IMG/VR virus record: IMGVR_UViG_3300045738_001611
Span: 1-33,530 of that record
Length of the DNA: 33,530 bases
Direction: 5' to 3' (one strand)
Origin: a virus
Position 1 is the stretch's first letter, and every line of letters starts with the position of its first letter. A program made the position numbers and the translations under genes. A model generated the notes under the pieces. That model ran no database searches. It was not told the origin of the DNA and was given only the letters and a program-made list of their open reading frames with translations. This document shows positions 7,339 to 32,093 of the stretch, piece after piece.

Positions 7339-7755
7339 ATGACTAAGTTTGACGCTGAAAAATTAATAAAAGACCTTTCAGAAGAGCAAAAGCAGAGGCT
7401 CATAGAAAAATTAACAGGGGAACCGGAAAAGAAAAAGGAAGAATCCTTTTCCGCCGTAACCCATTCTCACGTAATGAGAAATAGTCCCGTTACCACGGAA
7501 ATCAAACAGACCAAGCAAGAAGGACGGGTGACGGGCGTTCCGGTAAACGAAATGCCTCGATTTAACAAGTTCACAGACGACGGATCAGAACACAAGGACA
7601 ACCAAAACGAGACTCCCGATATTGGGTTGACAGAAAGAAGTCGAGAACCTTTTAAACTAATCAAACAAACCTGCACCCGATGCAGCAAAACGATTGAAAC
7701 AAACCCGCAGTTCTACAGAGAATTCTATATTTGTGACTCATGCCTAAAAAGATAA
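7339..7755 (+). CDS. protein with C-terminal zinc ribbon
   Basis: This is a 138-residue protein. The first 40 residues are a charged helical segment (LIKDLSEEQKQRLIEKLTG), and the middle is polar and probably disordered. The end is a compact zinc ribbon with two C-x2-C knuckles, CTRC and CDSC, separated by 16 residues. Such a two-part organisation suits an adaptor that binds a protein partner with its N-terminus and DNA with its ribbon. The last 16 bases overlap the helicase gene, so coupled translation is likely. A helicase-loading or primase-adaptor role would fit the position but is only inferred. The start is preceded by AAGGAGATGAC, a good ribosome binding site. Confidence 0.7.
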   Translation: MTKFDAEKLIKDLSEEQKQRLIEKLTGEPEKKKEESFSAVTHSHVMRNSPVTTEIKQTKQEGRVTGVPVNEMPRFNKFTDDGSEHKDNQNETPDIGLTERSREPFKLIKQTCTRCSKTIETNPQFYREFYICDSCLKR

Positions 7756-9206
7756 CAAAAAAACTTGAAGACTTGGCGGCAGAAAGAGCCGTTTTGTCAG
7801 CTCTCTGCCAGTATGGTTTAGACGCATACCTAGAAATAGATTTTATTAGTTCGCAGTCCTTTACAGACCCCACGAATCAATTAATATTCGATTGCATCTA
7901 CTCCTCCATCACGGAAAATACGCGGGTAGAATTGTCGTCAATCCTGTCTGCGGCTAACGATCTAGGCGTTTACGATCAGATAAACACTAAAGAAGAAATT
8001 GGGTTTATCCGGTCGTTATTCAACTTCCCCATTCACAAAGAAAACGTTGGAGTGCACGCCGCTAAGATAGCAAAGCTAAAGATTGCTAGAGATCTTAAGA
8101 GAAATCTAAAAGCTTGTGAAAATGACCTTAGCTCCATCACCGGCGACGAAGATATCATGGATATCGTCGCTAAGATTGAGGAACCCTTACTTGAAGCCAC
8201 AGGAGATATATATCAGTCGTCCAAAAAGAACACAGAGGTTCTTGGCGACGGTGTACAGGATCATATACAGTATCTTTCAGAAAATGTTTCTGACTTTGTT
8301 GGCATTCCCAGTGGTTTTAAGAGATTTGACGAAGCTATCGGAGGAGGCCTGCGGAGAAAATGTGTTGATCTTGTAGCGGCACGCCCCAAGGTAGGTAAGT
8401 CTATGTTTGGTGATGAGGTGGCCCTACATGTCGCTGGGGAACTAGATATCCCCGTGCTAATGTTAGACACAGAGATGTCAAAAGAAGATCATTACAACCG
8501 CATCTTAGCCAATTTGTCGGGAGTGGAGATCAACAGAATCGCAACGGGTAGATTTTCGGAAAAAGAAATAGAAAAAGAAAAGGTACTTGCGGCCGCAGAC
8601 AAACTAGAAAAAATTCCGTATCACTATATAAGTATCGCCGGAGAATCATTTGAGAACATTTTGAGCCAAATGAGAAAATGGATATATCAGCACGTTGGTT
8701 TTGACGAGAATGGCCAAACAAAAGACTGTCTAATAGTTTATGACTATCTGAAGCTCATGGGATCAGAGAGCATTAGTTCTGCAATGCAAGAGTACCAAGT
8801 TCTGGGTTTTCAAATCACAAAACTGCATAATTTCATGGTTAAGTACGATGTACCGTGTCTGTCTTTTGTTCAATTAAACAGAGATGGTATTACTAGAGAA
8901 TCCACAGATGTTGTCTCGGGGTCGGATAGACTCATTTGGCTGTGTACCAGTTTCTCGATTTTTAAGATGAAGTCCGATGAAGAAGTGGCTACGGACGGCA
9001 TTGATAATGGAAATAGAAAACTTGTACCAATAGTGGCAAGACATGGAGCCGGTTTGGATGACGGCGATTACGTGTGTATGAAGATGCATGGAAATTTTGG
9101 ACGAATAGAAGAGGGTGAGACCAGAAACGAAATTCATGGGAATAGACAAGAAGGCTTTGAAACAGATGAGAATATTGACGAAGAATCAGATATCGGCAAT
9201 CTGTAA
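7740..9206 (+). CDS. dnaB: replicative DNA helicase, DnaB type
   Basis: This 488-residue protein is a hexameric 5'-3' helicase of the DnaB family. The N-terminal domain begins with the usual ERAVLSALCQYG. A linker follows, then the RecA-like motor. That motor starts with the family phrase IPSGFKRFDEAIGGGL, has Walker A ARPKVGKS around residue 214, a LDTEMSKEDHYNRI segment (helicase H1a-like), Walker B CLIVYDYLKL near residue 330, and SFVQLNR downstream. The length is a little over that of E. coli DnaB, owing to an acidic tail. It starts inside the zinc-ribbon gene and overlaps the primase, matching the usual helicase-primase gene pair. No strong ribosome site is visible, which fits coupled translation. 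Confidence 0.92.
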   Translation: MPKKITKKLEDLAAERAVLSALCQYGLDAYLEIDFISSQSFTDPTNQLIFDCIYSSITENTRVELSSILSAANDLGVYDQINTKEEIGFIRSLFNFPIHKENVGVHAAKIAKLKIARDLKRNLKACENDLSSITGDEDIMDIVAKIEEPLLEATGDIYQSSKKNTEVLGDGVQDHIQYLSENVSDFVGIPSGFKRFDEAIGGGLRRKCVDLVAARPKVGKSMFGDEVALHVAGELDIPVLMLDTEMSKEDHYNRILANLSGVEINRIATGRFSEKEIEKEKVLAAADKLEKIPYHYISIAGESFENILSQMRKWIYQHVGFDENGQTKDCLIVYDYLKLMGSESISSAMQEYQVLGFQITKLHNFMVKYDVPCLSFVQLNRDGITRESTDVVSGSDRLIWLCTSFSIFKMKSDEEVATDGIDNGNRKLVPIVARHGAGLDDGDYVCMKMHGNFGRIEEGETRNEIHGNRQEGFETDENIDEESDIGNL

Positions 9207-10209
9207 TGAAATGTTCCCCAAGTTGCCATCGCTGATGGCTTACTTTGGAATAGACTACATGGAATACCCCAATAGGATTGCTTTTCCGTGCCCCGTCCAC
9301 GGCGGAGACAATCCGGAGGGGTGTTGCATATTTACTGACGGAATGACCCAAAAGGGAAATTGGTCTTGCTGGACACATCACTGCGAAGAAGATTTTGTCA
9401 ACAACTTGTTTGGTTTTGTGCGGGGATGTTTGTCCCAAAAAAGAGACAAGAGCATTTCGATGAATGAAGCCGCCGCCTTCTGCTCAAATTTTTTAGATAA
9501 GGATATCGAAGAACTGAATTTGGATGTGGATTATAAAAATAACTTTAAAGTTATTGATATCTTTAGCCGAAAAATAGAAAGGTTAGATCCACTAATAACT
9601 AGAGATGAGGTTAGAGCAAAAATAAACATACCAGCAGAGTATTATATCGGGAGAGGATATATACCGGAAACCCTAGATTTATTCGATGTCGGAGAATGTT
9701 CTGTAAAAAATCAACCAATGTCGGGAAGAGTTGTTGTCCCAGTCTATGATGAAGGCTATAATTATATAGGATGTGTGGGCAGAGCCACAGACGATAAGAC
9801 GCAGCCGAAATGGTTGCACAGCAGGGGTTTTAAAAAGTCTGTACTATACGGTTTACACTTAGCAAAAGACAAAATATTGAAAACACAGACAGCCATTTTG
9901 GTCGAAGGACAGGGTGACGTTTGGCGAATGCATGAGGCCGGTTTTGAAAATACTGTCGGAATTTTTGGATCTAGCATCAATGATGACCAACTTATGTTAC
10001 TTGAGTCCAGCGGTGCTCTTAATCTAGTTATCCTTACTGATTCAGATGAAGCTGGCAATAAGGCCTTTTTGCAAATTGTAAAAAAATGCGGAAGAAGATT
10101 CAACTACTGTCGTCCTTCAATCTCTCAAAAAGATGTTGGAGACATGTCTATAGAACAAATAAAAGAAGAACTATATCCTCAATTAAAAGGAATGACCCAT
10201 GCAAAGTAG
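9136..10209 (+). CDS. dnaG: DNA primase (zinc finger plus TOPRIM)
   Basis: This protein would make RNA primers for lagging-strand synthesis. With ATG 9136 it has 357 residues. An N-terminal zinc-binding unit has CPVH followed by CW-T-HHC, as in CHC2-type primase fingers. The catalytic core has the TOPRIM Glu in ILVEGQGDVWR and the metal-binding DxD in ILTDSDEAG. No helicase domain is present, so it is a stand-alone primase like those of T4-type phages rather than a T7-type fusion. It overlaps the helicase. The start is uncertain: a GTG at 9115 and an ATG at 9166 are in the same frame and none has a clearly better ribosome site. The end overlaps the kinase start by 11 bases. Confidence 0.85.
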   Translation: MGIDKKALKQMRILTKNQISAICNEMFPKLPSLMAYFGIDYMEYPNRIAFPCPVHGGDNPEGCCIFTDGMTQKGNWSCWTHHCEEDFVNNLFGFVRGCLSQKRDKSISMNEAAAFCSNFLDKDIEELNLDVDYKNNFKVIDIFSRKIERLDPLITRDEVRAKINIPAEYYIGRGYIPETLDLFDVGECSVKNQPMSGRVVVPVYDEGYNYIGCVGRATDDKTQPKWLHSRGFKKSVLYGLHLAKDKILKTQTAILVEGQGDVWRMHEAGFENTVGIFGSSINDDQLMLLESSGALNLVILTDSDEAGNKAFLQIVKKCGRRFNYCRPSISQKDVGDMSIEQIKEELYPQLKGMTHAK

Positions 10210-13484: not shown

Positions 13485-15083
13485 ATGAAATCAAATTGGA
13501 TACCTTTGAATTGCAAGACGCACTATAGCTTACAAAAAGCGTTTTGCAAAAACGACATTCTAGCACGACGGTGCAATGAGTATGGCTATACCGCATGCGG
13601 CATAGCTGACATCAAAACCCTTTCCGGTACTGTTGACTTTCATCAAGAATGTAAGAAAAACGGAGTTAAGCCCATCATAGGGTGCGACTTTGAGGGTTAC
13701 TTGCTGTTTGCCAAAAATAAGGACGGATGGACCGATTTGATAAAGTATGTATCCAATCAAAATCTAAGTGTGCTTAAGGAGACTGCCGAAAGAGGCAATG
13801 TTATTTGTATTTCTCCAGATCCTAACGGACTCAAAAAACTATTTAAGGGCAATCATTTTCAATATAATTACAACAAACACAAGGTGTACTATGTCACCAA
13901 GGACGAGGCGGATTGTCACAGGGTCTTGCTTTGTTCTGGGATGAAAACAACCCTCAAAAAGGTCGGCCTGCTTCTCAAGAATCAACAAGAGATTGACAAC
14001 AAAGAGTTCTTTTTGTCAGACGGCTTCTCTTTGCCCGATGTCGTAACATCTGAATCTTATAAAGAGACAGACATAGTAAATCAAATAGCAGATCTCTGCG
14101 AAGAATACGAAGTTGCGGACAAACCTATGCTACCGGAATTCAAGTGTCCAGAAGGAATGGATGCAGACGAATACCTGACAGACCTATGTAGAAATGGTTG
14201 GCGTAAAAAACTACTTTCTAGCAAAAAGATTGCAGACAAAGAGAATGAAAACATATATGCAGAAAGAATAAAGCGTGAGTTAAAGGTAATTTTCAAGGCT
14301 GATCTTTCTGGATATTTTTTGATCGTTCAAGACATCATAAACTTTGTAAAGAGTCAGGGGTGGCTTGCTGGCCCCGGAAGAGGGTCTGCTGCCGGATGCC
14401 TTGTTTCTTATCTGTTGGGTATTACGGGCGTTGACCCAATAGAGTATGGCTTACTTTTTGAGCGTTTTTATAACGAAGGACGTAATACGGAAGACTATGT
14501 TTCGTTGCCCGATATTGACATGGATGTGCCAGCAGAACATAGAGACGAAGTGATTGACTACATCAAGCAAAAATACGGAAAAGAAAACGTTGCTCAGATG
14601 ATTACGTTTGGCAGGCTTCAGGGTAGAGCGGCCATCAAAGAGGTTTTAAGAATAAACGACGCTGTGTCATTTGCAGAAATGAACACGATAACAGAGAGTA
14701 TTCCAGATGAGTCCAGAATCTCTGACCAGCTAGAGCTGATGGACGATAAGTCTATTATTAAATGGACACTGGAAAATGAACCAGAGAGCCTGAAAAACTG
14801 GTGCATGTTGAATGACGACGGTCAACTGGAAGGCCCCCTCTCGCACCTATTTGAACAGGCAATTAAGATCGAAGGAACCAACAAATCGCAGGGTAAACAT
14901 CCTGCGGGGGTAATCATTTCAAAACACAAGCTGGCGAATGTGTGCCCCATGACAAAAGACAAATCTGGAGATACCATTGCAGCATTTGACATGGGAGATC
15001 TAGAAACACAGGGACACGTAAAGTTTGACGTGTTGGGTATTGACTTATTATCAAAAATAATGGAGATTTCAAGTAATGACTAA
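13485..15083 (+). CDS. dnaE: DNA polymerase III alpha subunit (DnaE), N-terminal half
   Basis: This is a 532-residue protein corresponding to the first half of a C-family replicative polymerase. It starts with a PHP domain in which the usual H-x-H metal pair is replaced (PLNCKTHYSL) and the D-H pair is 'ADI', so metal binding looks lost. The palm follows: YFLIVQDIINFVKSQG, the PGRGSAAG signature, PDIDMDV with Asp345 and Asp347, and the third catalytic Asp515 in HVKFDVLG. These match E. coli D401, D403 and D555. The protein stops 17 residues after the third Asp, before the fingers. The stop overlaps the next gene's ATG. It presumably functions as a two-subunit polymerase with the gene at 15999. 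Confidence 0.9.
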   Translation: MKSNWIPLNCKTHYSLQKAFCKNDILARRCNEYGYTACGIADIKTLSGTVDFHQECKKNGVKPIIGCDFEGYLLFAKNKDGWTDLIKYVSNQNLSVLKETAERGNVICISPDPNGLKKLFKGNHFQYNYNKHKVYYVTKDEADCHRVLLCSGMKTTLKKVGLLLKNQQEIDNKEFFLSDGFSLPDVVTSESYKETDIVNQIADLCEEYEVADKPMLPEFKCPEGMDADEYLTDLCRNGWRKKLLSSKKIADKENENIYAERIKRELKVIFKADLSGYFLIVQDIINFVKSQGWLAGPGRGSAAGCLVSYLLGITGVDPIEYGLLFERFYNEGRNTEDYVSLPDIDMDVPAEHRDEVIDYIKQKYGKENVAQMITFGRLQGRAAIKEVLRINDAVSFAEMNTITESIPDESRISDQLELMDDKSIIKWTLENEPESLKNWCMLNDDGQLEGPLSHLFEQAIKIEGTNKSQGKHPAGVIISKHKLANVCPMTKDKSGDTIAAFDMGDLETQGHVKFDVLGIDLLSKIMEISSND

Positions 15084-15300
15084 TGCTAGTAAGAATGAAT
15101 ACAAATCTGTAGTTTATTCTGGATGTTCAATTGAAAGTAGTGGCGTTTCGGTGTGCAACCTAGAAGACGTTATGAGTACTAGAATTGGAGTGCCTAGAGC
15201 TAAATATCAGGTGTGGTCCGACAAACATAGATTCCACGCACTTTTTCATACATTAGACGAAGCTGTTGATAAATTTATGGAACTTAGAATAAAGAGGTAG
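15076..15300 (+). CDS. 74-residue unknown protein between the polymerase halves
   Basis: This is a small unrecognised protein. It starts within the stop region of the polymerase N-terminal half (ATGACTAA) with GGAG about ten bases upstream. Residues 9-30 look like short beta strands (YKSVVYSGCSIESSGVSV). The later region has a basic stretch (RIGVPRAKYQVWSDKHRFH), and a helix closes the protein (LDEAVDKFMELRIKR). 'AKYQVWSDKHRFHALFHTLDEAVDKFMEL' has the feel of a small alpha/beta domain. It has two cysteines but no metal pair. It could serve the split polymerase as a joining or accessory factor, which is only a guess from its place, or simply be cargo of whatever split the gene. Confidence 0.6.
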   Translation: MTNASKNEYKSVVYSGCSIESSGVSVCNLEDVMSTRIGVPRAKYQVWSDKHRFHALFHTLDEAVDKFMELRIKR

Positions 15301-15302
15301 AT

Positions 15303-15989
15303 ATGAATTATAGAGACATAATTGTTTTTGACTTTGAAACCGGCGGTAGAAACCCCCATAAGTGCCAACCTACACAGATTGCGGCAATTGCTATTCACGC
15401 TAGGAAACTAACGATGCAACCCGGGGGAGTTTTTAATAGCGAAATGCGTCCCATTCTTGATGACGATAAAGCTATAGCCGCCGGACTTGACCCAGTGGAA
15501 GATGAGGCACTGGAGATAACCCATAAGACAAGAGCCAAACTCGCAAAAGCACCACTTCCCAAAACCGTCTGGAAAAAGTTTGGTCAGTTCTGTAACAAGT
15601 ACAACTTTAAGAAGACTGGCTGGACTGCCCCGATTGCAGCCGGATATAATATCAATGGTTACGATATGCCCATCGTTGAACGCATGTGTCAAGCATATGG
15701 CCCGATTGACGAAAAGCGTGGACGACAAAAGCTGTTTAATCCTATCTTCACAATGGATCTTATGCAGCACGTATATTGCTGGTTTGAGAACAACGCTGAC
15801 GTTAAGGGTTACAGCATGGATTATATGCGAGATTATTTTGGTATGCCGACAGACAACGCCCATGATGCATTACAGGACGTAAAAGACACGGCTAATATTT
15901 TAATCAAGTTCTTGAAGATGCAAAGAAACCTTTCTAAGAAGATTAAATTTGAGAAGGCTTTTTCTAAGGGTGAAATGTATGTCACATAA
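15303..15989 (+). CDS. DEDDh 3'-5' exonuclease, probable polymerase proofreader
   Basis: This is a 228-residue DnaQ-like exonuclease. The four catalytic acidic residues and the general base are all visible: Asp10 and Glu12 in VFDFETGG, Asp121 in NINGYDMP, and His187-x4-Asp192 in HDALQDVKD, which makes it the DEDDh type. A basic C-terminal helix (NLSKKIKFEKAFSKG) may contact a partner. It is preceded by AGAGGTAGAT and lies between the two halves of the DnaE polymerase, so a role as the epsilon-like proofreading subunit is a strong inference. The polymerase N-terminal half also has a damaged PHP domain, so the only intact exonuclease near it is this one. Its TAA is in frame with the next gene. 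Confidence 0.9.
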   Translation: MNYRDIIVFDFETGGRNPHKCQPTQIAAIAIHARKLTMQPGGVFNSEMRPILDDDKAIAAGLDPVEDEALEITHKTRAKLAKAPLPKTVWKKFGQFCNKYNFKKTGWTAPIAAGYNINGYDMPIVERMCQAYGPIDEKRGRQKLFNPIFTMDLMQHVYCWFENNADVKGYSMDYMRDYFGMPTDNAHDALQDVKDTANILIKFLKMQRNLSKKIKFEKAFSKGEMYVT

Positions 15990-15998
15990 AGAGGGGGA

Positions 15999-17591
15999 AT
16001 GGATTGTCCGATGAATGAATTTGATATCAACGACTTTGAAGACGAGAAGGTTTGGGATTTGATTTGTGATGGAAATACCAAGGGTGTTTTTCAACTAGAA
16101 TCTAGTCTAGGGAAGCACTGGGCTAAAGAAGTTAGACCAAGGAACATTAAAGAATTGGCGGCTCTTATTAGTCTTATTCGCCCCGGTTGCCTAAAAGCCA
16201 AAGACGCGAATGGCAATAGTATGACACAGGTTTACGCAGACCGAAAGGCCGGTAAGCCGAACAGCCCCGTAGAGTATCTTCATGAGTCGTTGAAGCCCAT
16301 TCTTAAGGAAACATACGGGGTGCTGGTATATCAAGAGCAATCCATGAAAATTGCTCAGGTACTCGCTGGATTCGATCTGAAGGAAGCTGACGCACTACGA
16401 AAGGCTATTGGCAAAAAGAAGGCCGACCTTATGGAGAATGTAAAAAAAGCCTTTCTAAAGGGCACCGTAAAACAAGGAACCATTACCATCGAGGTGGCAG
16501 AAGAGATTTTCTCTTGGATCGAAAAATCGAACCGATACGCTTTTAATAAATCTCACGCCGTATCATACGCTTTCAATGCGTACTGGTCGGCATACTGCAA
16601 GACATATAGACCGAAGAAGTTCTATGAAAAGTATCTCAACAGATCGGACAAAAAACCAAAGCCCGACATAGAGAAAAAACAATTAATTATGGACGCCAAG
16701 CGGTCAGACATCGAGGTGCTTCCTCCTCGGTTGCAGCATCTTTATACTAACTTTTACCGACACCCAGAGAAAGACATTATTTACTTTGGACTTAGACATG
16801 TCAAGAACGTTGGGATAAAAGAGTGTGACAAGTTAGAGGGGCTCAAGAACAGTGTAGATATTTCAAAATATAGCTGGATGGATTCCCTTGTTGGCATAAT
16901 TTACGAATTAAATCTTAACAAAAGGGCTGTTATAGCTTTAATTTCTGTCGGTGCTTTTAGCGGCAAAAATAACACCGTCAGCAGACAGCGGATGCTCTAT
17001 GAGTTTGATAGCTGGAAGCAACTGTCTGCCAGAGAACAAAAGTCTATTGCAGACAACCACAAAGGCAAAAACCCCGAATTACATGGGGAGAACTTGGCAG
17101 CTTGTATTGATCACATGGTTACCACCATCAAGGTTAATTCTCGAAGACTAACCACGGTGATAGACATTAAAAAGTCATTAGAAAACCCTTTTTATAATCT
17201 TGATGACAGGACTTTCACCATGGCAACAGATGAAGAGAAGTACATGAGTTGCTCATTAACCTGCGATAAAATTGATGGAATAGAGATAAATGTATCAACT
17301 TCTATGTGCAAAGACGTTGCAAATGGCACGATAACAGGTAAAGCTAATCTTGCAGTGCAAATTGTGTCTGTTAGAACCCATAAAACAAAGCGTGGAAAAA
17401 ACCCCGGCCAGCTCATGGCCTTTTTGTGTGTTGAAGATGGTAGCGGATCTGTTGATTCAATCACTGTATTTCCTGAATGTTACGAGGAACATAGGGATTT
17501 GCTGGTTGAGGGCAACACGGTGCTAATGTTAGGAGAAATATCTAAGAGGGATAAAACATCCCTTATTGTCAACCAAGTGTCACAAATTTGA
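15999..17591 (+). CDS. dnaE: DNA polymerase III alpha subunit (DnaE), C-terminal half
   Basis: This 530-residue protein continues the DnaE polymerase. It opens with DFEDEKVWDLICDGN and then GVFQLESS, matching the fingers region just after the third catalytic Asp of bacterial alpha. It goes on with LIRPGCLKAK, GVLVYQEQSM, LRKAIGKKK and FNKSHAVSYA, all family signatures. A helix-hairpin-helix-like region follows (IIYFGLRHVKNVGIKECDKL). An OB fold ends it (VRTHKTKRGKNPGQLMAFL). It contains none of the three catalytic Asp, so it can only work with the N-terminal half. The start is 15999 with GAGGGGG immediately before it; ATG 16011 gives better spacing and is a real alternative. SSB follows by nine bases. 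Confidence 0.9.
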   Translation: MDCPMNEFDINDFEDEKVWDLICDGNTKGVFQLESSLGKHWAKEVRPRNIKELAALISLIRPGCLKAKDANGNSMTQVYADRKAGKPNSPVEYLHESLKPILKETYGVLVYQEQSMKIAQVLAGFDLKEADALRKAIGKKKADLMENVKKAFLKGTVKQGTITIEVAEEIFSWIEKSNRYAFNKSHAVSYAFNAYWSAYCKTYRPKKFYEKYLNRSDKKPKPDIEKKQLIMDAKRSDIEVLPPRLQHLYTNFYRHPEKDIIYFGLRHVKNVGIKECDKLEGLKNSVDISKYSWMDSLVGIIYELNLNKRAVIALISVGAFSGKNNTVSRQRMLYEFDSWKQLSAREQKSIADNHKGKNPELHGENLAACIDHMVTTIKVNSRRLTTVIDIKKSLENPFYNLDDRTFTMATDEEKYMSCSLTCDKIDGIEINVSTSMCKDVANGTITGKANLAVQIVSVRTHKTKRGKNPGQLMAFLCVEDGSGSVDSITVFPECYEEHRDLLVEGNTVLMLGEISKRDKTSLIVNQVSQI

Positions 17592-17600
17592 AGGAAAAAA

Positions 17601-17903
17601 ATGAATAGATGCCATTTTTTAGGAAAGTTCACGGATGACCCAGAAGGGTTTCTTGAAAACGGTGTGTCGGTAATCCGATTTACTTTGGAAATCGAAGAAC
17701 ATAGAAAAGGAAGAGACGGGGATAAAATAAAATCTTTTACTTATCTAGAATTTGAAGCTTGGGACACCGCCGCAAAAGCTATAGCAAAGTATGCCCATGA
17801 TGGATGCATGATGGCTGTTGAGGCTATTGCACGAAACGACACAGAGTCGGAAGATCAAGATTATGTTATCTTTAGGGTAACAAGTTTTAAAATCCTGAAC
17901 TGA
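17601..17903 (+). CDS. ssb: single-stranded DNA-binding protein
   Basis: This 100-residue protein is a single OB fold of SSB type. It starts with MNRCHFLGKFTDDPE, which follows the pattern of bacterial SSB (MNxxxLxGxLxxDPE). The fold continues with VIRFTLEIEEHRKG, the strand SFTYLEFEAWDTAAKAIAKY with the typical aromatic residues, and MMAVEAIARND. The acidic C-terminal tip of bacterial SSB that recruits partners is missing; it ends in SFKILN. The strong site AAGGAAAAAA precedes the ATG. It closes the replication block and follows the polymerase, as expected for a replisome cluster. Confidence 0.87.
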   Translation: MNRCHFLGKFTDDPEGFLENGVSVIRFTLEIEEHRKGRDGDKIKSFTYLEFEAWDTAAKAIAKYAHDGCMMAVEAIARNDTESEDQDYVIFRVTSFKILN

Positions 17904-17911
17904 AAGACACC

Positions 17912-19579
17912 ATGAGAAAAAAGAAGATCTTATTCGTTTCAGAGGCCTCTTGGAAAGCTACTGGCTATTCTGTATACACCAAAGAGGTTTTGAGTAGACT
18001 GTCTCAAATTCAAAATCTAGAAGTTGCAGAGCTTGCTTGCTACGCCTGTTCCACAGACACGGAAATCCAAACCACCCCTTGGAAGGTTTATCCCAATAAA
18101 CCCCATCCCAACTCTCCAGAATTCCAAGAGTACAAAAGAACTCCCACTAGAGTTTTTGGCGAACAAACATTCAATGGTGTTCTCTTAGACTTTCAGCCAG
18201 ATGTTGTGATGGACATTCGGGACTGGTGGATGTTTGAATATCAACAACGCTCACCATTTCGAGACTTGTTTCACTGGGCGATTATGCCCACCGTTGACGC
18301 GGCTCCACAGAATCCACAGTGGATAAACACCTTTCAGTCAGCTGACTCGGTTTTGGCGTATTCGGAGTTTGGCAGAGATGTGATGCTAGAACAGTGCGAT
18401 AATCTCAACTTTGTAGACGTTGCATCTCCGGCCGCTAGTGAAGCCTTCTATCCCGTCACAGATAAGGTTGCCCACAAAGAGTCTATGGGGGTTAACGGCG
18501 ACTCTATTATAGTGGGCACTGTAATGAGAAACCAAAGAAGGAAGCTCTATCCCGACCTTTTCAAATCATTTCGCCAGCTTTTAGATGAAACCAAAAACCC
18601 TAATCTTTTTCTTCTCTGTCATCAATATTATCCGGACATCGGCTGGGAGACCCCTGCGTTGCTAGATCGTTTTGGATTGAGTAATCGAGCACTCTTTTCC
18701 TATAGGTGTGCGGACTGTGGAGTTCTTCAGGTGGACTTTTTTCAGGATTCCGTTGGTTATTGTGTACAATGTAAGAAATTTAAAAGACAAATGGTGGGAC
18801 TCGACAACCCCGTTACCGAAGATGAGCTAAACGCAATTTATAATTTATTTGATGTTTATGTACAATATGCCAACAGCGAGGGGTTTGGTATGCCTCAGCT
18901 AGAAGCTGCTTATGCCGGAGTGCCCGTTGTCTCTACATATTATTCTGCAATGGAATCTGTCATTGACAACATAGGGGGCGTCGGCATTAATCCTCTGGCG
19001 TATTCTATGGAATGTGAAACCGGTTGTTACAGAGCGATACCGAATAACGATAAGTTCGTAGAAGTTTTAAAAGAACTGTTAACGAGCTCGGAAACCACAG
19101 ACAACCACACCGCCGCACAAAAACTAAGAAACAGAGGCTTAGAGATATCAAAAAGAGCAAGAGCTCATTACAGCTGGGATAAAACCGCAGACATTTGGGC
19201 TAATCGCATTGCGTCGATTCCAATGAGAGACCCAAAAGAAACTTGGCTCTCTCCACCGCAAATACACGAGGCAGCCAAGCACGTTCCAGACAACATCAGA
19301 GACTTGGCCGATAAGGTGGACTTTATATTTACAGACATTCTGCACAAACCACAATGGATTGGCGGATATTTGTGGGCCAAGATTTTGCGGGACTGCACGT
19401 TTAAATACAGGGTTTTAAATAAGGATAGTGATTTTTACTTCAATGAATCACATCTACCGTCAATGGATCAGTACCAACCCTTCAGCTTTGAAAAAGCGTG
19501 CCAAGAAATGACATTCTTTAGAAACCAAATTAACGAATGGGAAACGCTGAGAGGAAATTTAAGTGGACAACCAGCCTAA
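17912..19579 (+). CDS. GT-B glycosyltransferase (GT4-like) with inserted zinc ribbon
   Basis: This is a 555-residue glycosyltransferase. The N-terminal Rossmann half starts ILFVSEASWKATGYSVYT and contains acceptor-binding loops. The C-terminal half shows the GT4 E-x7-E motif in SEGFGMPQLE (Glu323 and Glu331) with AAYAGVPVVS after it. Between them is a zinc ribbon, C266-x2-C269 and C284-x2-C287, placed where GT-B enzymes normally have the donor-side strand. About 130 further residues follow the donor domain (PQIHEAAKHV onward). This is longer than most single-domain GT4 enzymes. It opens the glycan island. Sugar and linkage are unknown. Confidence 0.85.
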   Translation: MRKKKILFVSEASWKATGYSVYTKEVLSRLSQIQNLEVAELACYACSTDTEIQTTPWKVYPNKPHPNSPEFQEYKRTPTRVFGEQTFNGVLLDFQPDVVMDIRDWWMFEYQQRSPFRDLFHWAIMPTVDAAPQNPQWINTFQSADSVLAYSEFGRDVMLEQCDNLNFVDVASPAASEAFYPVTDKVAHKESMGVNGDSIIVGTVMRNQRRKLYPDLFKSFRQLLDETKNPNLFLLCHQYYPDIGWETPALLDRFGLSNRALFSYRCADCGVLQVDFFQDSVGYCVQCKKFKRQMVGLDNPVTEDELNAIYNLFDVYVQYANSEGFGMPQLEAAYAGVPVVSTYYSAMESVIDNIGGVGINPLAYSMECETGCYRAIPNNDKFVEVLKELLTSSETTDNHTAAQKLRNRGLEISKRARAHYSWDKTADIWANRIASIPMRDPKETWLSPPQIHEAAKHVPDNIRDLADKVDFIFTDILHKPQWIGGYLWAKILRDCTFKYRVLNKDSDFYFNESHLPSMDQYQPFSFEKACQEMTFFRNQINEWETLRGNLSGQPA

Positions 19580-20210
19580 AGAACTATATGGAGTGGGACA
19601 ATTTGGTCAAGACTGTTTTGTAGACAAAATACTAGATATGGACGGAGGATTTTTTCTCGACATAGGGGCTGGTATTAGCCACCAGAGTGTAGACAGCGTG
19701 GGGATTTATTCGATGAGCAACACGTACTGGCTAGAGAGCGAGAGGAAGTGGACGGGAATAGGAATAGACTATGATGAGGCGTATATCAATGCCGCAAAGC
19801 AAGTCAGACCATGCAAGCTGCTATGCGTTGACCTAATGGAAAATAATATAAACGAGATACTAGAGCAGAATAACTGCCCCGAAAACATAGACTATTTGTC
19901 TTTTGATGTGGACGACGCCCAGAGTAAGGTTTTTAGCGAACTCGATTTTTCAAAATACCAATTTAGAGTGATCACATATGAACACAATTTATTTAGGGGA
20001 AACCCCGAAGAACAAAAAGTGTCTAGAGCTACATTTAAAGCACTGGGATACAAATTGTTATTTGGCAACGTGGGATACATGGCTGAAAATGGCGTCTGGA
20101 CACAAGAGGCCGTAGAAGACTGGTACGTGGATGCCGAGATTTTCCAGAAACATGGACACTTAGCCGAAGATAACTTGTATCCCGTAGAAGCCCTATCAAA
20201 GTTAGAGTAA
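19563..20210 (+). CDS. FkbM-like methyltransferase
   Basis: This is a 215-residue class I methyltransferase of FkbM type. The SAM-binding strand GGFFLDIGAGISHQSV is at about 28-43. The acidic second-strand residue follows in IGIDYDEAYI, and the FkbM hallmark appears as IDYLSFDVDDAQSKVF with YQFRVITYEHN. The family usually has D-x-E-G in this place; here 'DVDDAQ' is a variant. It starts with GTG, 17 bases before the preceding stop, so coupled translation is likely. FkbM enzymes O-methylate sugars or carbamoylated and polyketide hydroxyls. A sugar is likely here from context. Confidence 0.8.
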   Translation: MDNQPKELYGVGQFGQDCFVDKILDMDGGFFLDIGAGISHQSVDSVGIYSMSNTYWLESERKWTGIGIDYDEAYINAAKQVRPCKLLCVDLMENNINEILEQNNCPENIDYLSFDVDDAQSKVFSELDFSKYQFRVITYEHNLFRGNPEEQKVSRATFKALGYKLLFGNVGYMAENGVWTQEAVEDWYVDAEIFQKHGHLAEDNLYPVEALSKLE

Positions 20211-20213
20211 ATT

Positions 20214-21308
20214 ATGAAAGTGTTGTACATAGGAAATTATCGAGATGGCACTGGCTGGGCGAACGCTTGTGCTGGAAACATCTTAGCACTTGATGCGGCG
20301 GGTATTGATGTGGTTCCCAGAGCCATTAGCTTTGAGACCCAAGACAAAGGCTATCCTGATAGAGTAAGGGAGCTGGAACAACGGCATAAAAACCGGAGCA
20401 GTAACTGTGACTGTGATATTGTCATTCAGCACACACTGCCCCATCTTTACTGCTATGATGCCAGTTATAAAAACATCGGATTTTGCGACACGGAATCGCA
20501 CGACTTTTCCACGACGGGGTGGCAATACTCAATAAATATGATGGACGAACTGTGGGTACCGAGCCAACAAAACGTAGAAGCGGCTAAACGTAGTGGTGTT
20601 ACTATTCCTATTAAGATGGTTCCACACTCTATAGATATTGCTCGGTATCAAGACACGGGGGGCGAGAAAATAAAACAAATGGAAGGGTGTTTTACTTTTG
20701 GTTTTGTGGGAGAGTTTATTGAAAGAAAAAACATTAAAGCCCTGATTCAGGCTTTTCATATTGAATTTGGGACAAGAGAGCCGGTCAATATGTTTATTAA
20801 AACCTCTAAGGTTCCACTGGAAACAATACAGGGCTACTGTACACAAGTTAAAAAAGGTCTGAAAATAAGAAGGGACTACAAAGAAGAAATAGTAGTAACA
20901 GGAATAATGCCTAAACAGGACTATATTTCAGTCCTGAGTCAAGTAAACTGTTTTGTGATGCCTAGCCGAGGCGAGGCGTTTTGTATTCCAGCTTTAGAAG
21001 CAATGGCACTTGGTGTCCCCGCTATCTATACCGAAGGTATCGGAATGGACTTCTGTGTCGGTCAACCAATTGAATCTAGGCTAACCCCGTGTTTCGGGGC
21101 GGTAGATACTCTCTTAGACCTCGACACGGCGGCCACATCTTGGTCAGAAATAGATGTTTTAAAATTGTCAAAAGCCATGCGAGAGGCATATAATCAATAT
21201 GGTACAGAAGAAGAAAAAACCTTAAAAGAAGCATGTCTCTTCCGAGCAGAGATTTTTGACCACAAACCCATTGGACAAAGAATGAAGGAGTTACTGAGTG
21301 ACAGCTAA
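20214..21308 (+). CDS. GT-B glycosyltransferase, GT4-like
   Basis: This 364-residue enzyme has the GT4 double Rossmann layout. The first half opens with KVLYIGNYRDGTGWANA and contains NIGFCDTESHDFS and DELWVPSQQNVEA, the acceptor side. The second half starts at FGFVGEFIERKNIKALI and contains the donor-binding segment with E-x7-E (Glu254 and Glu262 in RGEAFCIPALE, then AMALGVPAI). No signal or membrane helix is seen. It follows the FkbM gene after three bases and overlaps the next glycosyltransferase by 11. The 'EAFCIP' with a Cys replaces the more usual 'EGFG(L/M)P'. Confidence 0.85.
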   Translation: MKVLYIGNYRDGTGWANACAGNILALDAAGIDVVPRAISFETQDKGYPDRVRELEQRHKNRSSNCDCDIVIQHTLPHLYCYDASYKNIGFCDTESHDFSTTGWQYSINMMDELWVPSQQNVEAAKRSGVTIPIKMVPHSIDIARYQDTGGEKIKQMEGCFTFGFVGEFIERKNIKALIQAFHIEFGTREPVNMFIKTSKVPLETIQGYCTQVKKGLKIRRDYKEEIVVTGIMPKQDYISVLSQVNCFVMPSRGEAFCIPALEAMALGVPAIYTEGIGMDFCVGQPIESRLTPCFGAVDTLLDLDTAATSWSEIDVLKLSKAMREAYNQYGTEEEKTLKEACLFRAEIFDHKPIGQRMKELLSDS

Positions 21309-22377
21309 CGCGACCAGAAGATCCATCAGATCTTTAATGAGAAAAGTCAAACAGGGAGACAAGTTGAATATTTTAGTCTTCCCTACTCACGAAAGATACG
21401 AACATAATTTGTGTCAAACGGGACACAATTTTTACTCTCTTAATATTGGCAAGGGGTGGGAGCGAGCCTATTCTGAGGTTCCAGAAAATTATCATCTGAT
21501 TGATTCAATACCGGAATACGTTGATTTCGACTTGATCTTGGGTCACACGAGTTGCGAGAGATTAGAAATTGCACACGACCTGATATCTGAGACACAAAAG
21601 TCTCCGGTAAATAAACTGTCGATTCCAGTTCTTCGGCACTCTCACGTGCTGCCAGACGTTCGATTTGATACAGAGCAACAAATACAACAATACCAATCCA
21701 TACCAGTAGATCGCACTTCTTTTATCTCTAATTTTAACAGAAACGCGTGGGGCTTCGACGAAAGCAATTCTAGTGTTATCGAGCACGGTATCGACACGGA
21801 CTTTTGGAAGCCTAGTTCACTAGAGCACGAGGAGCTACTACCCAAGACAAACGACGTCTGTTTATCTGTTGTAAATGATTGGCCTAACAGGGACTGGTGC
21901 TGCGGTTTTGATCTTTGGAGACAAACCACGCAAGGTCTGCCCGTAAAGGTGTTAGGACACAGCCCAGGGTTATCTGAAGCGGCGGAGTCGGTTGAACATT
22001 TACGAGAGGAGTACAGATCATCTCGCTTGTTTTACAACACGTCGTTACATTCTCCTGTTCCTACCGTACTTATGGAGGCTATGGCCTGCGGGTGTGCTAT
22101 CGTATCGACTGCTACTTGTATGATTCCCGAAATAATCGAACACGGTAAAAATGGGCTAATTTCCAATGACCCCAATGAATTGCGGGGTTTTTTGGAAATG
22201 TTGCTAAAGGACAAAGACTTAGCAAACAAGTTGGGGCAAGAAGCCAGAAAAACAATTTGTGAAAAATACAACCTACAGTCCTTCGTGGATAACTGGAACA
22301 ATCTTTTTTATGATACAATCGAAAACTATACGGACGTAATGGAGGTCTCCAATGAGAATATATCTCAGTCAATCTGA
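21298..22377 (+). CDS. GT-B glycosyltransferase, GT4-like, divergent
   Basis: This is a 359-residue protein starting with GTG inside the preceding gene. It has two Rossmann-like halves: LNILVFPTHERYEHNLC, then the acceptor loop 'ILGHTSCERL'. The C-terminal half includes the nucleotide-binding part SPVPTVLMEAMACGCAIVS and IIEHGKNGLISNDP. The first Glu of the usual E-x7-E motif is replaced (SPVPTVLME), so only the second is present. This is common in some family branches but leaves the mechanism open. The following gene overlaps by 26 bases, with a strong GGAGG site inside this gene. Substrates unknown. Confidence 0.78.
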   Translation: MTANATRRSIRSLMRKVKQGDKLNILVFPTHERYEHNLCQTGHNFYSLNIGKGWERAYSEVPENYHLIDSIPEYVDFDLILGHTSCERLEIAHDLISETQKSPVNKLSIPVLRHSHVLPDVRFDTEQQIQQYQSIPVDRTSFISNFNRNAWGFDESNSSVIEHGIDTDFWKPSSLEHEELLPKTNDVCLSVVNDWPNRDWCCGFDLWRQTTQGLPVKVLGHSPGLSEAAESVEHLREEYRSSRLFYNTSLHSPVPTVLMEAMACGCAIVSTATCMIPEIIEHGKNGLISNDPNELRGFLEMLLKDKDLANKLGQEARKTICEKYNLQSFVDNWNNLFYDTIENYTDVMEVSNENISQSI

Positions 22378-22774
22378 GCCCGAAGACGGCTCCCTTGAGC
22401 ACTTTACAAACGTGGCAACCTTTTCTAGGGGGGTAATGGATAGTGAGGCCACTAGCATTGTGTGCGACAGATTCTTATCTTCATTCGCTTATAACAAAGT
22501 CGAAGCGGTATTAGATTTAGTGCTACAAAAAATGAGAATCGGGTGCGAGCTGACAATCATGGAGCCGGATTTTTATTTGATATCCAAACATATTTTTCAG
22601 GATCGCGTTGAGGAAAAATTAATCAACGACATCGTATTTAAATATGGTAACCTAAAATCCATTCTTACTATGGAAACTATAGAAAAATGGGTTTGCCCCA
22701 GATTAGAGATTGTTTCCAAGCACTTCGATGAGAAGTTTTGCATGGCTATCATAAAAACAAGGAGAAGCGAATGA
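22352..22774 (+). CDS. methyltransferase-like remnant lacking the SAM-binding motif
   Basis: This is a 140-residue protein. Its core, DRFLSSFAYNKVEAVLDLVL then MRIGCELTIMEPDFY, lines up by eye with the latter half of small class I methyltransferases, where 'ASHVLEHFP..EVxxVLxEWxRVLKPGGxLxIxVPDF' is usual. The N-terminal GxGxG strand (motif I) and the acidic second-strand residue are absent, and the His of the 'HVLEH' phrase is also changed. An active SAM enzyme is therefore doubtful. It may be a binding or partner protein. The frame and the strong GGAGGTCTCCA ribosome site argue that it is expressed and not a pseudogene. Confidence 0.6.
   Translation: MRIYLSQSEPEDGSLEHFTNVATFSRGVMDSEATSIVCDRFLSSFAYNKVEAVLDLVLQKMRIGCELTIMEPDFYLISKHIFQDRVEEKLINDIVFKYGNLKSILTMETIEKWVCPRLEIVSKHFDEKFCMAIIKTRRSE
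22353..22374 (+). other. coupled translation: overlap of GT4 and methyltransferase-like genes
   Basis: This is the overlap between the glycosyltransferase ending at 22377 and the gene starting at 22352. The GGAGGTCTCC immediately before 22352 lies in the last codons of the upstream gene and is one of the strongest ribosome sites in the window. It decides the downstream start and shows that the small methyltransferase-like protein is actively translated. Confidence 0.6.
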
Positions 22775-23586
22775 CAAAAGTACAAACCAACTGTGAAGGA
22801 TGTGTCTTCACAGAAGAAAAAAAACACCATCTGGGCACAAAAAAAGGTACTCAGATCGGGTGCTCTCTCGAACGACACAACTTGCTCGAAGTAGAAAAGC
22901 TTGATGACAAAGGTAATTTTATATTAAAAAGATTCTGTAACACATATCGTCCCGAAGAGTGGATTCAGGACTTAGATTTCGACGACGCCCTAAACCCCGA
23001 AGAAACCGTTCTTCAAGAGGTGTTTCCCCGTATAGGATTTTTTATTCGTCTTGACACCGATGACCCCACAGCTATCGAAGACTTGGATATAACGCTCACA
23101 AGTATTACGCAACTCACAGGAGAAGACGCTGCCTATGTGGCGGTGGTTACTGATAAAGTGGAGTATAACGTCGGTATCTGGGAATCCTGTGTAAAACATT
23201 TTGCTGAAACCAACACTAAATATCATGTTGTCCAAGCACTCAAGCTGGAATCCGAAGAAGACGTATTAGAAGAGGCGTTTTTACACGCACAAAATGGCTG
23301 GGTTTATTCCACCTCCGCTGGAGAGTTGGTGCCTAGCGACATTCTCGATAAGCTGCATGAACTACTCAATATAAAACTGGAACAGTTGGTTATGGTTGAG
23401 CCCTATAGTGGTCTCAATGGTTTGATGTTTCCGGCGTTTCTTTTTAAGTTTTTAAAGGGAAACAAGGCCAAGTTGTTCCAAGACCAAACTGTCTCCTCGG
23501 GTACTTTTATAGAAAAAATAAAGAACGCCCAAAAACAGGATCAGACGAGCGGTGTTTTAACTTGGGAGGAATTTAATGCTTCCTAA
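22771..23586 (+). CDS. Cys-rich N-terminus joined to a GT-A-like region; function unassigned
   Basis: This is a 271-residue protein with ATG 22771, preceded by AAGGAGAAGCGA and sharing ATGA with the preceding stop. An upstream ATG at 22738 in frame has no such site. The first 60 residues carry four cysteines (C8-x2-C11, C31, C56) with basic residues, suggestive of a metal site; 'FCNTYRPEEW' closes the unit. The rest is alpha/beta. IGFFIRLDTDDPTAIEDL resembles the first strand and loop of GT-A sugar transferases. I cannot find a clear D-x-D. It sits between a methyltransferase-like gene and a GT2 gene, so a glycan role is likely, but the reaction is unknown. Confidence 0.6.
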   Translation: MTKVQTNCEGCVFTEEKKHHLGTKKGTQIGCSLERHNLLEVEKLDDKGNFILKRFCNTYRPEEWIQDLDFDDALNPEETVLQEVFPRIGFFIRLDTDDPTAIEDLDITLTSITQLTGEDAAYVAVVTDKVEYNVGIWESCVKHFAETNTKYHVVQALKLESEEDVLEEAFLHAQNGWVYSTSAGELVPSDILDKLHELLNIKLEQLVMVEPYSGLNGLMFPAFLFKFLKGNKAKLFQDQTVSSGTFIEKIKNAQKQDQTSGVLTWEEFNAS

Positions 23587-24304
23587 TATTGCGATTATTT
23601 GTGCCAACTATAACTACGGACACTTTGTTATTGACGGCATCAAGAGTATTGACAAACAAACCTACAAGGGTCCAATTAAAATCTTCGTTGTTGACGACGG
23701 ATCGTCGGACGATTCTTGGGAAAAACTTTTAAACTATAAAGAGAGCCAAGAGAACCCTGAGAAATACTGTTTCATGAAAATCAAAAACTCAGGAGCGAGC
23801 GTTGCAAGAAACGTCGCCATCGCCGCGGCGTGGGATTGGGCTGATATCTTTGGCATTCTCGATGCTGATGACTCGTATTTTCCAGAAAAGGTTGAAAAGC
23901 TGGTGTCCAAGCTTGTCGAACACGAAGAAATCGGAGTGGCGTATGCTGATTACGAAAATGTGTCTCCTAGTTTTACAAAAAGAGAATTCAAAGTCTCATA
24001 TGATAAAGCAACCCTCATGCAAAGATGTATCGTGCATAGCAACTCGTTAATAAAAAAAGAATACCTCGAACAAGTCAAGCTCCCCAATGGTGAGTTTTTT
24101 GATAGTAGATTACATGGACCAGCGAGCGAGGGGTTCATCGGATGCACAGAAGACTACGACCTTTGGTTGAGATTGTCCAACGTTTGCGTTATGACACATG
24201 TGCCGGAGTGTTTAGGTGTAGCCAATCAGCATGAGAACAATCAGTCTAAAAAAATGACTCCCGAAATTTTTCACCGACAAGCCGAAATTCTGGGGTCTAG
24301 ATAA
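23576..24304 (+). CDS. GT2-family glycosyltransferase (GT-A)
   Basis: This 242-residue GT2 enzyme starts just inside the previous gene after GGAGGAATTTA. The first strand IAIICANYNYG, the helix IKSIDKQTY, and VVDDGSSDDSW with Asp40-Asp41 bind the nucleotide. The metal-binding segment DADDSYFPEK has D96-x-D98-D99. A later EDYDLWLRLS is the typical catalytic ED phrase of GT2. No membrane helix is present, so it acts in the cytoplasm or at the membrane surface. Donor is unknown. The final TAA shares a base with the next ATG. Confidence 0.88.
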   Translation: MLPNIAIICANYNYGHFVIDGIKSIDKQTYKGPIKIFVVDDGSSDDSWEKLLNYKESQENPEKYCFMKIKNSGASVARNVAIAAAWDWADIFGILDADDSYFPEKVEKLVSKLVEHEEIGVAYADYENVSPSFTKREFKVSYDKATLMQRCIVHSNSLIKKEYLEQVKLPNGEFFDSRLHGPASEGFIGCTEDYDLWLRLSNVCVMTHVPECLGVANQHENNQSKKMTPEIFHRQAEILGSR

Positions 24305-25014
24305 TGCAGCGATTCACAACAAGTATAACAAAAACTAAAAAAACAAAGTCCCAAAACGACCGACAGATAACTGTGGCTATTCTTTCTGCTGGGGTCGGTA
24401 GTCGGATTAAATCCTATGAGCCAAGAAGCCTGTTAAAAATAGGCAACAAGCTTTTGATCGAACATCAAGTAAATACCATCAACCAATGCTTTGAGTTCCC
24501 AGAAATAATCAACGTCATAGGCTGTCACGCGAACAAGGTGATTAAAAAAACAAGAGGGATTGCTAGGGTGGTGGAAAACCAACTGCACGATAGCAGCAAC
24601 TCCTCTGAAAGCCTAAGACTAGCGGTCAACAACACGTTAAACGAAAACATACTATTTATGCACGGCGATCTTTACTTTAACGAGAACACCCTAGATGTTA
24701 GCTACGATAAATCATTCATTATAGTAGACAAAACAAATCAAATCAAGGAAAATGAAGTTGGTGCAACCATATGCAATAACAAGCTATCTATACTGTCGTA
24801 TGGTCTGCCCACAAAATGGGCACAAATAGCATACTTCACCGCAAGAGAATTTAAGATACTTAAAAGCATTTTTCAAAAATATGAGTACCAAGACAAAAAG
24901 AGGTTATCTTTTGAAATTATCAACATGGTGATAGATGCTGGCGGTAATTTCGAGTGTTATGAACCTAAAGAAATGTCTATTATAGAGATAGATAGAATAA
25001 AGGATATTAAATGA
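24304..25014 (+). CDS. sugar-phosphate nucleotidyltransferase-like protein
   Basis: This is a 236-residue protein of the nucleotidyltransferase (NTP_transferase, MobA-like) fold. The signature is VAILSAGVGSRIKSYE with PRSLLKIGNKLLIEHQV. The usual 'G-x-G-x-R...P-K' pattern has Lys changed to Arg-Ser ('EPRS'). Later GDLYF gives the metal Asp, and the C-terminus has IIEID. It would make a nucleotide-activated sugar from sugar-1-phosphate and an NTP. The first 20 residues are a basic extension not found in the minimal fold. It follows a GT2 enzyme and precedes a glycosyltransferase, which fits a supply role for the island. Confidence 0.72.
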   Translation: MQRFTTSITKTKKTKSQNDRQITVAILSAGVGSRIKSYEPRSLLKIGNKLLIEHQVNTINQCFEFPEIINVIGCHANKVIKKTRGIARVVENQLHDSSNSSESLRLAVNNTLNENILFMHGDLYFNENTLDVSYDKSFIIVDKTNQIKENEVGATICNNKLSILSYGLPTKWAQIAYFTAREFKILKSIFQKYEYQDKKRLSFEIINMVIDAGGNFECYEPKEMSIIEIDRIKDIK

Positions 25015-31690: not shown

Positions 31691-31694
31691 CAAT

Positions 31695-32090: not shown

Positions 32091-32093
32091 CCG

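What the first reader, a model, noticed from the sequence alone, without database searches (positions are those of the whole stretch)
13485..17591. Replicative DnaE polymerase split into two genes, with an exonuclease and a small unknown gene in the gap
The N-terminal gene ends 17 residues after the third catalytic Asp (Asp515). The C-terminal gene begins at the fingers region, matching roughly residue 585 of E. coli alpha. The active site is therefore entirely in the first gene and the fingers and OB fold entirely in the second, so the two must assemble. No intein sequence is visible at either end. The 915-base gap is filled by two genes, leaving no room for an intron. A DEDDh proofreader and a 74-residue unknown occupy it. 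Known examples of split DnaE in cyanobacteria use a split intein; this does not.
Basis: partly seen in the sequence, partly recalled or inferred. Interest (0 to 1): 0.85.

Follow-up and report, generated by a model that had tools for sequence, protein, structure and literature searches.

The report
Phage replicative DNA polymerase in pieces
In a large, uncultured group of water-dwelling phages the only recognisable DNA-copying enzyme is made as two separate proteins, one with the catalytic site and one with the DNA-gripping parts, with a proofreading gene between them; sequence conservation indicates that the two work together without being spliced.

Summary
The window encodes a near full-length DnaE (Pol III alpha) as two genes: N (13485-15083: PHP, palm, all three catalytic Asp) and C (15999-17591, start probably 16011: fingers, HhH, OB). 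Between them lie a 74-residue ORF and a DEDDh exonuclease. It is neither an error nor a local accident. In 200 non-redundant loci (IMG/VR, MAGs) N, exonuclease and C are separate genes in this order; none is continuous. Tree: one origin. Both halves are under strong purifying selection (dN/dS about 0.04), diverge in step (Mantel r 0.93) and keep the catalytic residues. Large contigs hold one palm, one fingers, no PolA or PolB.

No intein or known intron lies at the break; relatives with real inteins elsewhere in the C gene serve as positive controls. Best explanation: a two-subunit replicase assembled non-covalently with a trans proofreader, from an old gene fission. The gap keeps gaining genes, often nucleases, so a homing-endonuclease origin is plausible but unproven. 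The 74-residue gene is dispensable (one clade lacks it), so it is not the glue.

Precedents exist (Aeromonas phage 25 gp43A/B, Aeh1 NrdA, jumbo-phage minimal split Pol III alpha). I found no description of this break in a sole DnaE: a new variant of a known kind.

The parts
13485..15083 (+). DnaE N-half, 532 aa: PHP domain and palm/thumb with catalytic Asp343, Asp345, Asp515
   Evidence: PF02811, PF07733; phrog_405; Taq/E. coli alpha alignment; Asp residues 150/150
15076..15300 (+). 74-residue protein of unknown function, start overlaps the N-half stop by 8 bases; dispensable in one clade
   Evidence: No Pfam or PHROG match; conserved in 26 aligned relatives; dN/dS 0.16; absent from clade B; AF2 pLDDT 86
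15303..15989 (+). DEDDh 3'-5' exonuclease, probable proofreader acting in trans; D10, E12, D121, H187, D192
   Evidence: PF00929; phrog_192 'DNA polymerase exonuclease subunit' E 4e-24; residues 156/156; dN/dS 0.028
15999..17591 (+). DnaE C-half, 530 aa: fingers, HhH, OB fold; likely start codon 16011
   Evidence: PF17657, PF14579, PF01336; phrog_405 continues at its position 625; Taq/E. coli alignment; AF2 model matches Pol III alpha
17601..17903 (+). single-strand binding protein (SSB), next gene in the same cluster
   Evidence: PF00436 E 2e-8; follows the C-half in most relatives
7740..9206 (+). DnaB-like replicative helicase (same replication module)
   Evidence: phrog_19 E 5e-48
9115..10209 (+). 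DNA primase (same replication module)
   Evidence: phrog_47 E 8e-42

Best explanation
The two genes encode two subunits of one replicative C-family DNA polymerase. The N subunit (PHP + palm/thumb) and the C subunit (fingers + HhH + OB) are translated separately from one gene cluster and meet non-covalently along the palm-fingers boundary to form the active enzyme. The DEDDh exonuclease encoded between them most likely proofreads in trans, as epsilon does for E. coli alpha. The break is an old gene fission, inherited from the common ancestor of a large group of aquatic phages. The gap it opened is now an ordinary intergenic space into which genes, notably HNH and other nucleases, repeatedly insert. 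Shown: the anatomy, the absence of intein/known intron, one origin, constraint, co-divergence, no rival polymerase on large contigs. Inferred: physical assembly, polymerase activity, proofreading role, and origin by insertion of a mobile nuclease or other gene.
For: Domains and catalytic residues are complementary and complete. 200 non-redundant loci all have N, exo, C separate and in this order. Split group is one clade against continuous DnaEs, support 100. dN/dS medians 0.043 (N) and 0.041 (C); N and C distance matrices r = 0.93, 0 of 499 permutations as high. One palm and one fingers match per large contig, no PolA or PolB, with controls ringing. Gene cluster with helicase, primase and SSB. 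Gap insertions in 66 of 155 loci, including Endonuclease_7-type HNH, HNH_3 and GIY-YIG-like genes. Precedent: split gp43A/43B of Aeromonas phage 25 co-purify with polymerase activity, and split NrdA of Aeh1 is active (PMC2988022). The isolated C-half model is confident in the HhH region (pLDDT about 90) but poor in its first 70 or so residues, the fingers (44-65), as expected if these need the palm (shallow alignment, so weak).
Against: No biochemical, structural or transcript data. A complex could not be modelled with the tools. The window itself has no nuclease of the homing type in the gap, so the origin is inferred only from relatives. Large contigs may be incomplete, so another polymerase gene could be missing. 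In deep lineages the halves can be more than 6 kb apart (L286), so tight co-translation is not needed.
Confidence: 0.86

Rival explanations
1. The halves are joined after all: by protein trans-splicing through an unrecognised very short split intein, or by RNA trans-splicing of an unrecognised intron.
For: Split inteins do fracture this polymerase in some relatives (L036, L069, L070), and cyanobacterial DnaE is joined this way.
Against: Those split inteins sit at another site (RYAFNK|S in the fingers) and are easily seen: N part CLSPKTVVITENGEK...CTLDHKF, C part ...HVFYGDGIATSN|S. At the palm-fingers break no such sequence exists in any lineage examined. Rfam finds no intron. In compact relatives such as L240 exonuclease and gene ends abut.
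Confidence: 0.03
2. The genes do not form a polymerase: the phage relies on the host replicase, and N and C are decaying or repurposed fragments.
For: Split genes are sometimes decaying; the PHP metal motif is reduced in the window (KTH in place of HxH).
Against: dN/dS about 0.04 in both halves; palm Asp invariant in 150 of 150; co-divergence r 0.93; retained together in all 200 loci; sits with helicase, primase and SSB. A reduced PHP motif is also known from active E. coli alpha (own knowledge).
Confidence: 0.07
3. Sequencing, assembly or frameshift artefact.
For: None beyond the unusual structure.
Against: 200 non-redundant loci from many metagenomes and two MAG contigs show the same break with intact genes in the gap.
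Confidence: 0.01
4. The split arose by insertion of a homing endonuclease, later replaced by the exonuclease and other cargo (the specific origin within the best explanation), rather than by rearrangement or by loss of a split intein.
For: Nucleases recur in the gap: 17 Endonuclease_7-type genes just before C, others before the exonuclease; L148 has one directly at the C gene. Genes-in-pieces by mobE/mobA are documented (PMC2988022).
Against: Phylogenetically scattered and of several families, so they look like later invaders of an existing gap; exonuclease is the only gene always present; no pre-split state with an intermediate was found.
Confidence: 0.45

Closest known systems
Split DNA polymerase gp43A/gp43B of Aeromonas phages 25 and 44RR (T4-like, family B)
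   Same: Replicative phage polymerase encoded as two adjacent proteins that reassemble without an intein; a homing endonuclease gene or spacer at the break (PMC2988022)
   Different: Family B, not C; restricted to a few phages; no exonuclease gene in the gap
Minimal split Pol III alpha of group 2.2 jumbo phages (Iyer et al. 2021, PMC7824862)
   Same: Phage Pol III alpha encoded as two standalone proteins thought to reconstitute an enzyme
   Different: Those are minimal catalytic modules without other Pol III domains, genes far apart, split inside the catalytic region, and beside a family B polymerase. Here PHP, fingers, HhH and OB are all present and no other polymerase is seen
Cyanobacterial DnaE with split intein
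   Same: DnaE in two genes
   Different: Trans-spliced at a later site in the fingers (YCFNKSH region; own knowledge); here no intein and an earlier break. Some relatives (L036, L069, L070) carry a split intein at the corresponding RYAFNK|SHA position in addition
Aeh1 NrdA / mobE genes-in-pieces
   Same: Essential enzyme split by an inserted homing nuclease and functional in two pieces (PMC2988022)
   Different: Ribonucleotide reductase, one phage; here a whole clade and various gap genes
OM43 phages MEP401/MEP402 split DNAP with a small unknown ORF (PMC10580990)
   Different: Unrelated phage group, unresolved whether an intron; no proofreader gene reported in the gap
Tenacibaculum phage Larrie (ON950054) DnaE
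   Same: DnaE in two adjacent annotated genes
   Different: Broken before the DxD motif inside the palm, no gene in between; a separate event

Membership tests
C-family DNA polymerase (DnaE / Pol III alpha) | palm with three catalytic Asp | tested here: met
   PF07733 E 3e-74; D343, D345, D515 in 150/150 loci
C-family DNA polymerase (DnaE / Pol III alpha) | PHP, fingers, HhH and OB domains | tested here: met
   PF02811, PF17657, PF14579 over cut-off; PF01336 24.9 bits against a cut-off of 27; PDB profile hits
C-family DNA polymerase (DnaE / Pol III alpha) | single polypeptide | tested here: not met
   two ORFs 915 bases apart; 200 loci
C-family DNA polymerase (DnaE / Pol III alpha) | C-terminal tau-binding domain after the OB fold | tested here: not met
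   the OB match ends at residue 527 of 530
Split-intein DnaE (cyanobacterial type) or Dassa-type fractured gene | intein N and C parts at the break | tested here: not met
   gene ends too short and without blocks; positive controls L036/L069/L070/L173
Genes-in-pieces made by a homing endonuclease | nuclease gene in the break | tested here: inconclusive
   absent in the window; present in many relatives but of several families
Genes-in-pieces made by a homing endonuclease | two parts reassemble into an active enzyme | not testable with these tools
   only purifying selection and co-divergence
Jumbo-phage minimal split Pol III alpha | lacks other Pol III domains and coexists with a PolB | tested here: not met
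   PHP, HhH and OB present; no PolB in 14 large contigs
DEDDh exonuclease (epsilon/RNase T superfamily) | D-x-E, D, H-x4-D motifs | tested here: met
   PF00929 and phrog_192; D10, E12, D121, H187, D192 in 156/156
DEDDh exonuclease (epsilon/RNase T superfamily) | acts as proofreader bound to this polymerase | not testable with these tools
   gene always beside the C-half, co-divergence with C r 0.90

The most novel reading that the evidence does not exclude
The fission is not merely tolerated: these phages run a modular replicase in which a catalytic palm subunit is paired with a separately made fingers subunit that travels with its proofreader (exonuclease gene upstream of the C gene in all 200 loci, even where the N gene lies more than 6 kb away). 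Assembly of the active site would then be a regulated step rather than an accident of gene breakage.
Probability: 0.15. Interest if true: 0.8.

Novelty: new variant of a known kind. Interest (0 to 1): 0.62.

Why it matters
C-family polymerases are among the most conserved enzymes of bacteria and are thought of as single chains. A whole, apparently old phage clade that uses a two-chain version with no splicing shows that the palm-fingers boundary is separable in nature. It offers a ready-made system for asking how a polymerase active site assembles from two proteins. It also matters for annotation: gene callers and completeness tools will read the halves as truncated fragments, and the group is large (466 IMG/VR stretches encode a relative of its exonuclease) yet has no close relative among 50,697 phage records (best below 35% identity).

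Tried and rejected
Intein search by eye and by open-frame extension at both ends of all loci: none at the break. Rfam on the window and six relatives: nothing. Idea that the 74-residue gene is a required linker: rejected, it is absent in clade B and not elsewhere in those genomes. Idea that it was gained late: the trees favour gain at the base of the window's larger group and one loss in clade B. AP2-like fold guess for the 74-residue protein from its sequence: not supported; the model is H-EE-H-EE-H, no significant Foldseek match in PDB or BFVD, best VIA-align Z 5.9 to YkuJ over 62 residues, too weak to use. Bacteroides phages SJC03/DAC16 have a distant relative of the exonuclease, but it sits next to a terminase-like gene, not a DnaE half. 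OR844993 ('Staphylococcus phage SA 1306 Kay') looked like a good N-half match but is a continuous, bacterial-type dnaE. Host assignment from two MAG contigs (Flavobacteriales, SAR202) not trusted: L148 N- and C-halves are identical to those of an IMG/VR virus contig, so a binned virus is likely. T4-type capsid (PF07068, no control rang) and tail sheath (PF04984) gave no match, so the phage type is unsettled. The paper of Dassa et al. 2009 is not held; what is said of it rests on own knowledge and on PMC6892783.

Full report
1. Observation. Pfam puts PHP and the Pol III alpha palm domain in the first and fingers, HhH and a weak OB fold in the last; the 228-aa protein between is an RNase T/DEDDh exonuclease. 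In PHROGs both halves match one family, phrog_405: N up to profile position 609 and C from 625, so the two genes are consecutive parts of one polymerase. Against solved structures, N aligns to Taq alpha up to residue 626 and C from 650 (E. coli 591). Allowing for the unaligned ends of N and C, only about ten or fewer residues of a linker are missing. The break is at the palm-fingers boundary. The second ATG of C (16011) is the likelier start, because relatives begin with MNEFDIN, MSNFDIN or MFDIN.

2. How general it is. The window is a 33,530-base virus record. Scans with N, C and the exonuclease, in several rounds started from ever more distant members, gave over 300 loci. After removing identical exonuclease sequences, 155 loci with N, exonuclease and C were left, and 45 more from the deeper lineages: 200. 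In every one the three are separate genes in the same order. Within the group not a single continuous copy was found; continuous copies appear only in distant outgroups (L073, L075, L149, L288-L296, L362). Trees of the joined halves put the split group on one side of a branch with support 100, so one origin is the simplest reading; the outgroups sit on long branches, so its exact sister is unsettled.

3. What stays and what changes in the gap. Exonuclease is universal. The 74-residue gene was found in 88 of the first 155 loci and is absent from a whole clade (B: L148, L150-L261), and a profile search finds no copy elsewhere in nine of that clade's large contigs. In deep lineages other genes fill its place: a UDG-like gene plus a 100-aa ORF (L333), a 60-aa ORF (L341, L342), an RCC1-like 834-aa gene (L343) (the UDG and RCC1 readings are from the sequence by eye). 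In L286 and L287 more than 6 kb of metabolic-looking genes lie between N plus the 74-aa gene and the exonuclease plus C. 66 of the 155 loci carry extra genes in the gap: 17 Endonuclease_7-type HNH genes, an HTH-bearing family of 10 with HNH-like ends, HNH_3 and GIY-YIG-like nucleases, and methyltransferases and glycosyltransferases. So the break behaves as an ordinary intergenic space that collects mobile nucleases.

4. No splicing. At the palm-fingers break the N protein ends within a short, variable tail, and the C protein begins with a few residues or, in deep lineages, a roughly 35-residue cap with a CGC motif. Neither has intein blocks. That such blocks would have been seen is shown by relatives. 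L036, L069 and L070 have a typical split intein in the C gene at RYAFNK|SHAVSYA, with a DUF559/Vsr-like nuclease between its parts. L173 has a cis-intein with an HNH-like insert at RPG|C. L360 has a cis-intein ending ATSN|SHAYSYA. In the first three the polymerase is therefore in three gene pieces, of which only the last two can be trans-spliced. Rfam finds no intron, and in compact loci such as L240 the genes abut.

5. Is it functional? Median pairwise dN/dS is 0.043 for N, 0.041 for C, 0.028 for the exonuclease and 0.16 for the 74-aa gene (Nei-Gojobori on pairs with pS 0.05-0.7, dS high, so rough). N and C distance matrices correlate at r 0.93 (0 of 499 permutations as high), C and exonuclease at 0.90. 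All palm Asp are invariant in 150 N-halves and the exonuclease's D, E, D, H, D in 156. Eighteen large contigs (30-174 kb) have exactly one palm match, and fourteen have exactly one fingers match and no PolA, PolB or beta clamp, while the control genomes rang. The window's neighbours are PhoH, a RecA/UvsX-like protein, DnaB helicase, primase, dNMP kinase, another exonuclease and SSB. It follows that the pair is most likely the phage's replicase; that it assembles is inference, backed by the proven assembly of split gp43 in Aeromonas phage 25 and split NrdA in Aeh1 (PMC2988022).

6. Structure. The C-half model (17 sequences, mean pLDDT 78) finds Pol III alpha structures in PDB (best E 2e-19), with low TM-scores because the domain arrangement of the isolated chain is not fixed. 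The first 70 or so residues are low in confidence. The 74-aa model is decent (pLDDT 86) but has no significant match; the best second-look match is YkuJ, Z 5.9, too weak to build on.

7. What it resembles. It works like the split family B polymerase of Aeromonas phage 25 and like genes-in-pieces generally. It is not a cyanobacterial-type split-intein DnaE. It is not the minimal split Pol III alpha of jumbo phages, which lacks the other domains and coexists with a PolB (PMC7824862). A group with so many metagenomic members may have been noted in supplements I could not read.

8. Verdict. The four-gene view should be narrowed to N - exonuclease - C, and the claim of novelty tempered by the precedents. 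The origin is open: a mobile nuclease is plausible, since several kinds now live in the gap, but those seen are scattered and may be later arrivals.

Noticed in passing
L036 10402-11899; L069 4701-6198; L070 3950-5498: C-half broken a second time by a split intein (RYAFNK|C... and ...ATSN|SHAVSYA) with a NUMOD3/DUF559-Vsr-like nuclease gene between the intein parts: polymerase in three pieces, a fractured-gene arrangement in DnaE.
   Followed up: partly
L173 8316-9398; L360 8968-11100: Cis-inteins in the C-half: one with an HNH-like insert at RPG|CLK, one short at SN|SHAYSYA, the same site as the split intein of L036.
   Followed up: partly
L286 1784-8542; L287 2204-8986: N and C genes more than 6 kb apart, with six metabolic-looking genes (by eye: aldehyde dehydrogenase, aminotransferase, sugar-nucleotide dehydrogenase and others) between them.
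   Followed up: partly
L333-L350 C-half starts, L263, L269: Deep members carry a roughly 35-residue cap before the fingers with CGC and a further Cys before TWDLI, possibly metal-binding; lost in the window's lineage.
   Followed up: no
window 13485-13620; L262-L265: PHP metal motif intact (HLHTHYS) in deep members but reduced (CKTHYS, NYTHYS) in the window's lineage and clade B.
   Followed up: partly
L077 5701-9281; L297 1522-5135: Other phage DnaEs in two ORFs at other positions: Tenacibaculum phage Larrie before the DxD motif; Bacillus phage BpsS-140 between PHP and palm (unannotated there).
   Followed up: partly
L149 (OR844993), L292 (CAKLQH020000028): Records named as phage contain continuous bacterial-type dnaE genes (beside asparaginase and serine acetyltransferase genes in L292), probably bacterial chromosome.
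   Followed up: no
L148 versus L150/L198: A SAR202 MAG contig of 152 kb has N- and C-halves identical to those of an IMG/VR virus contig: a virus binned into a MAG.
   Followed up: no
L013 4391-5946: C-half in two ORFs at residue 255 without an insert; frameshift, error or a further break.
   Followed up: no
window 17912-32585: Long run of glycosyltransferase, epimerase, methyltransferase and sugar-nucleotide genes after the replication module.
   Followed up: no
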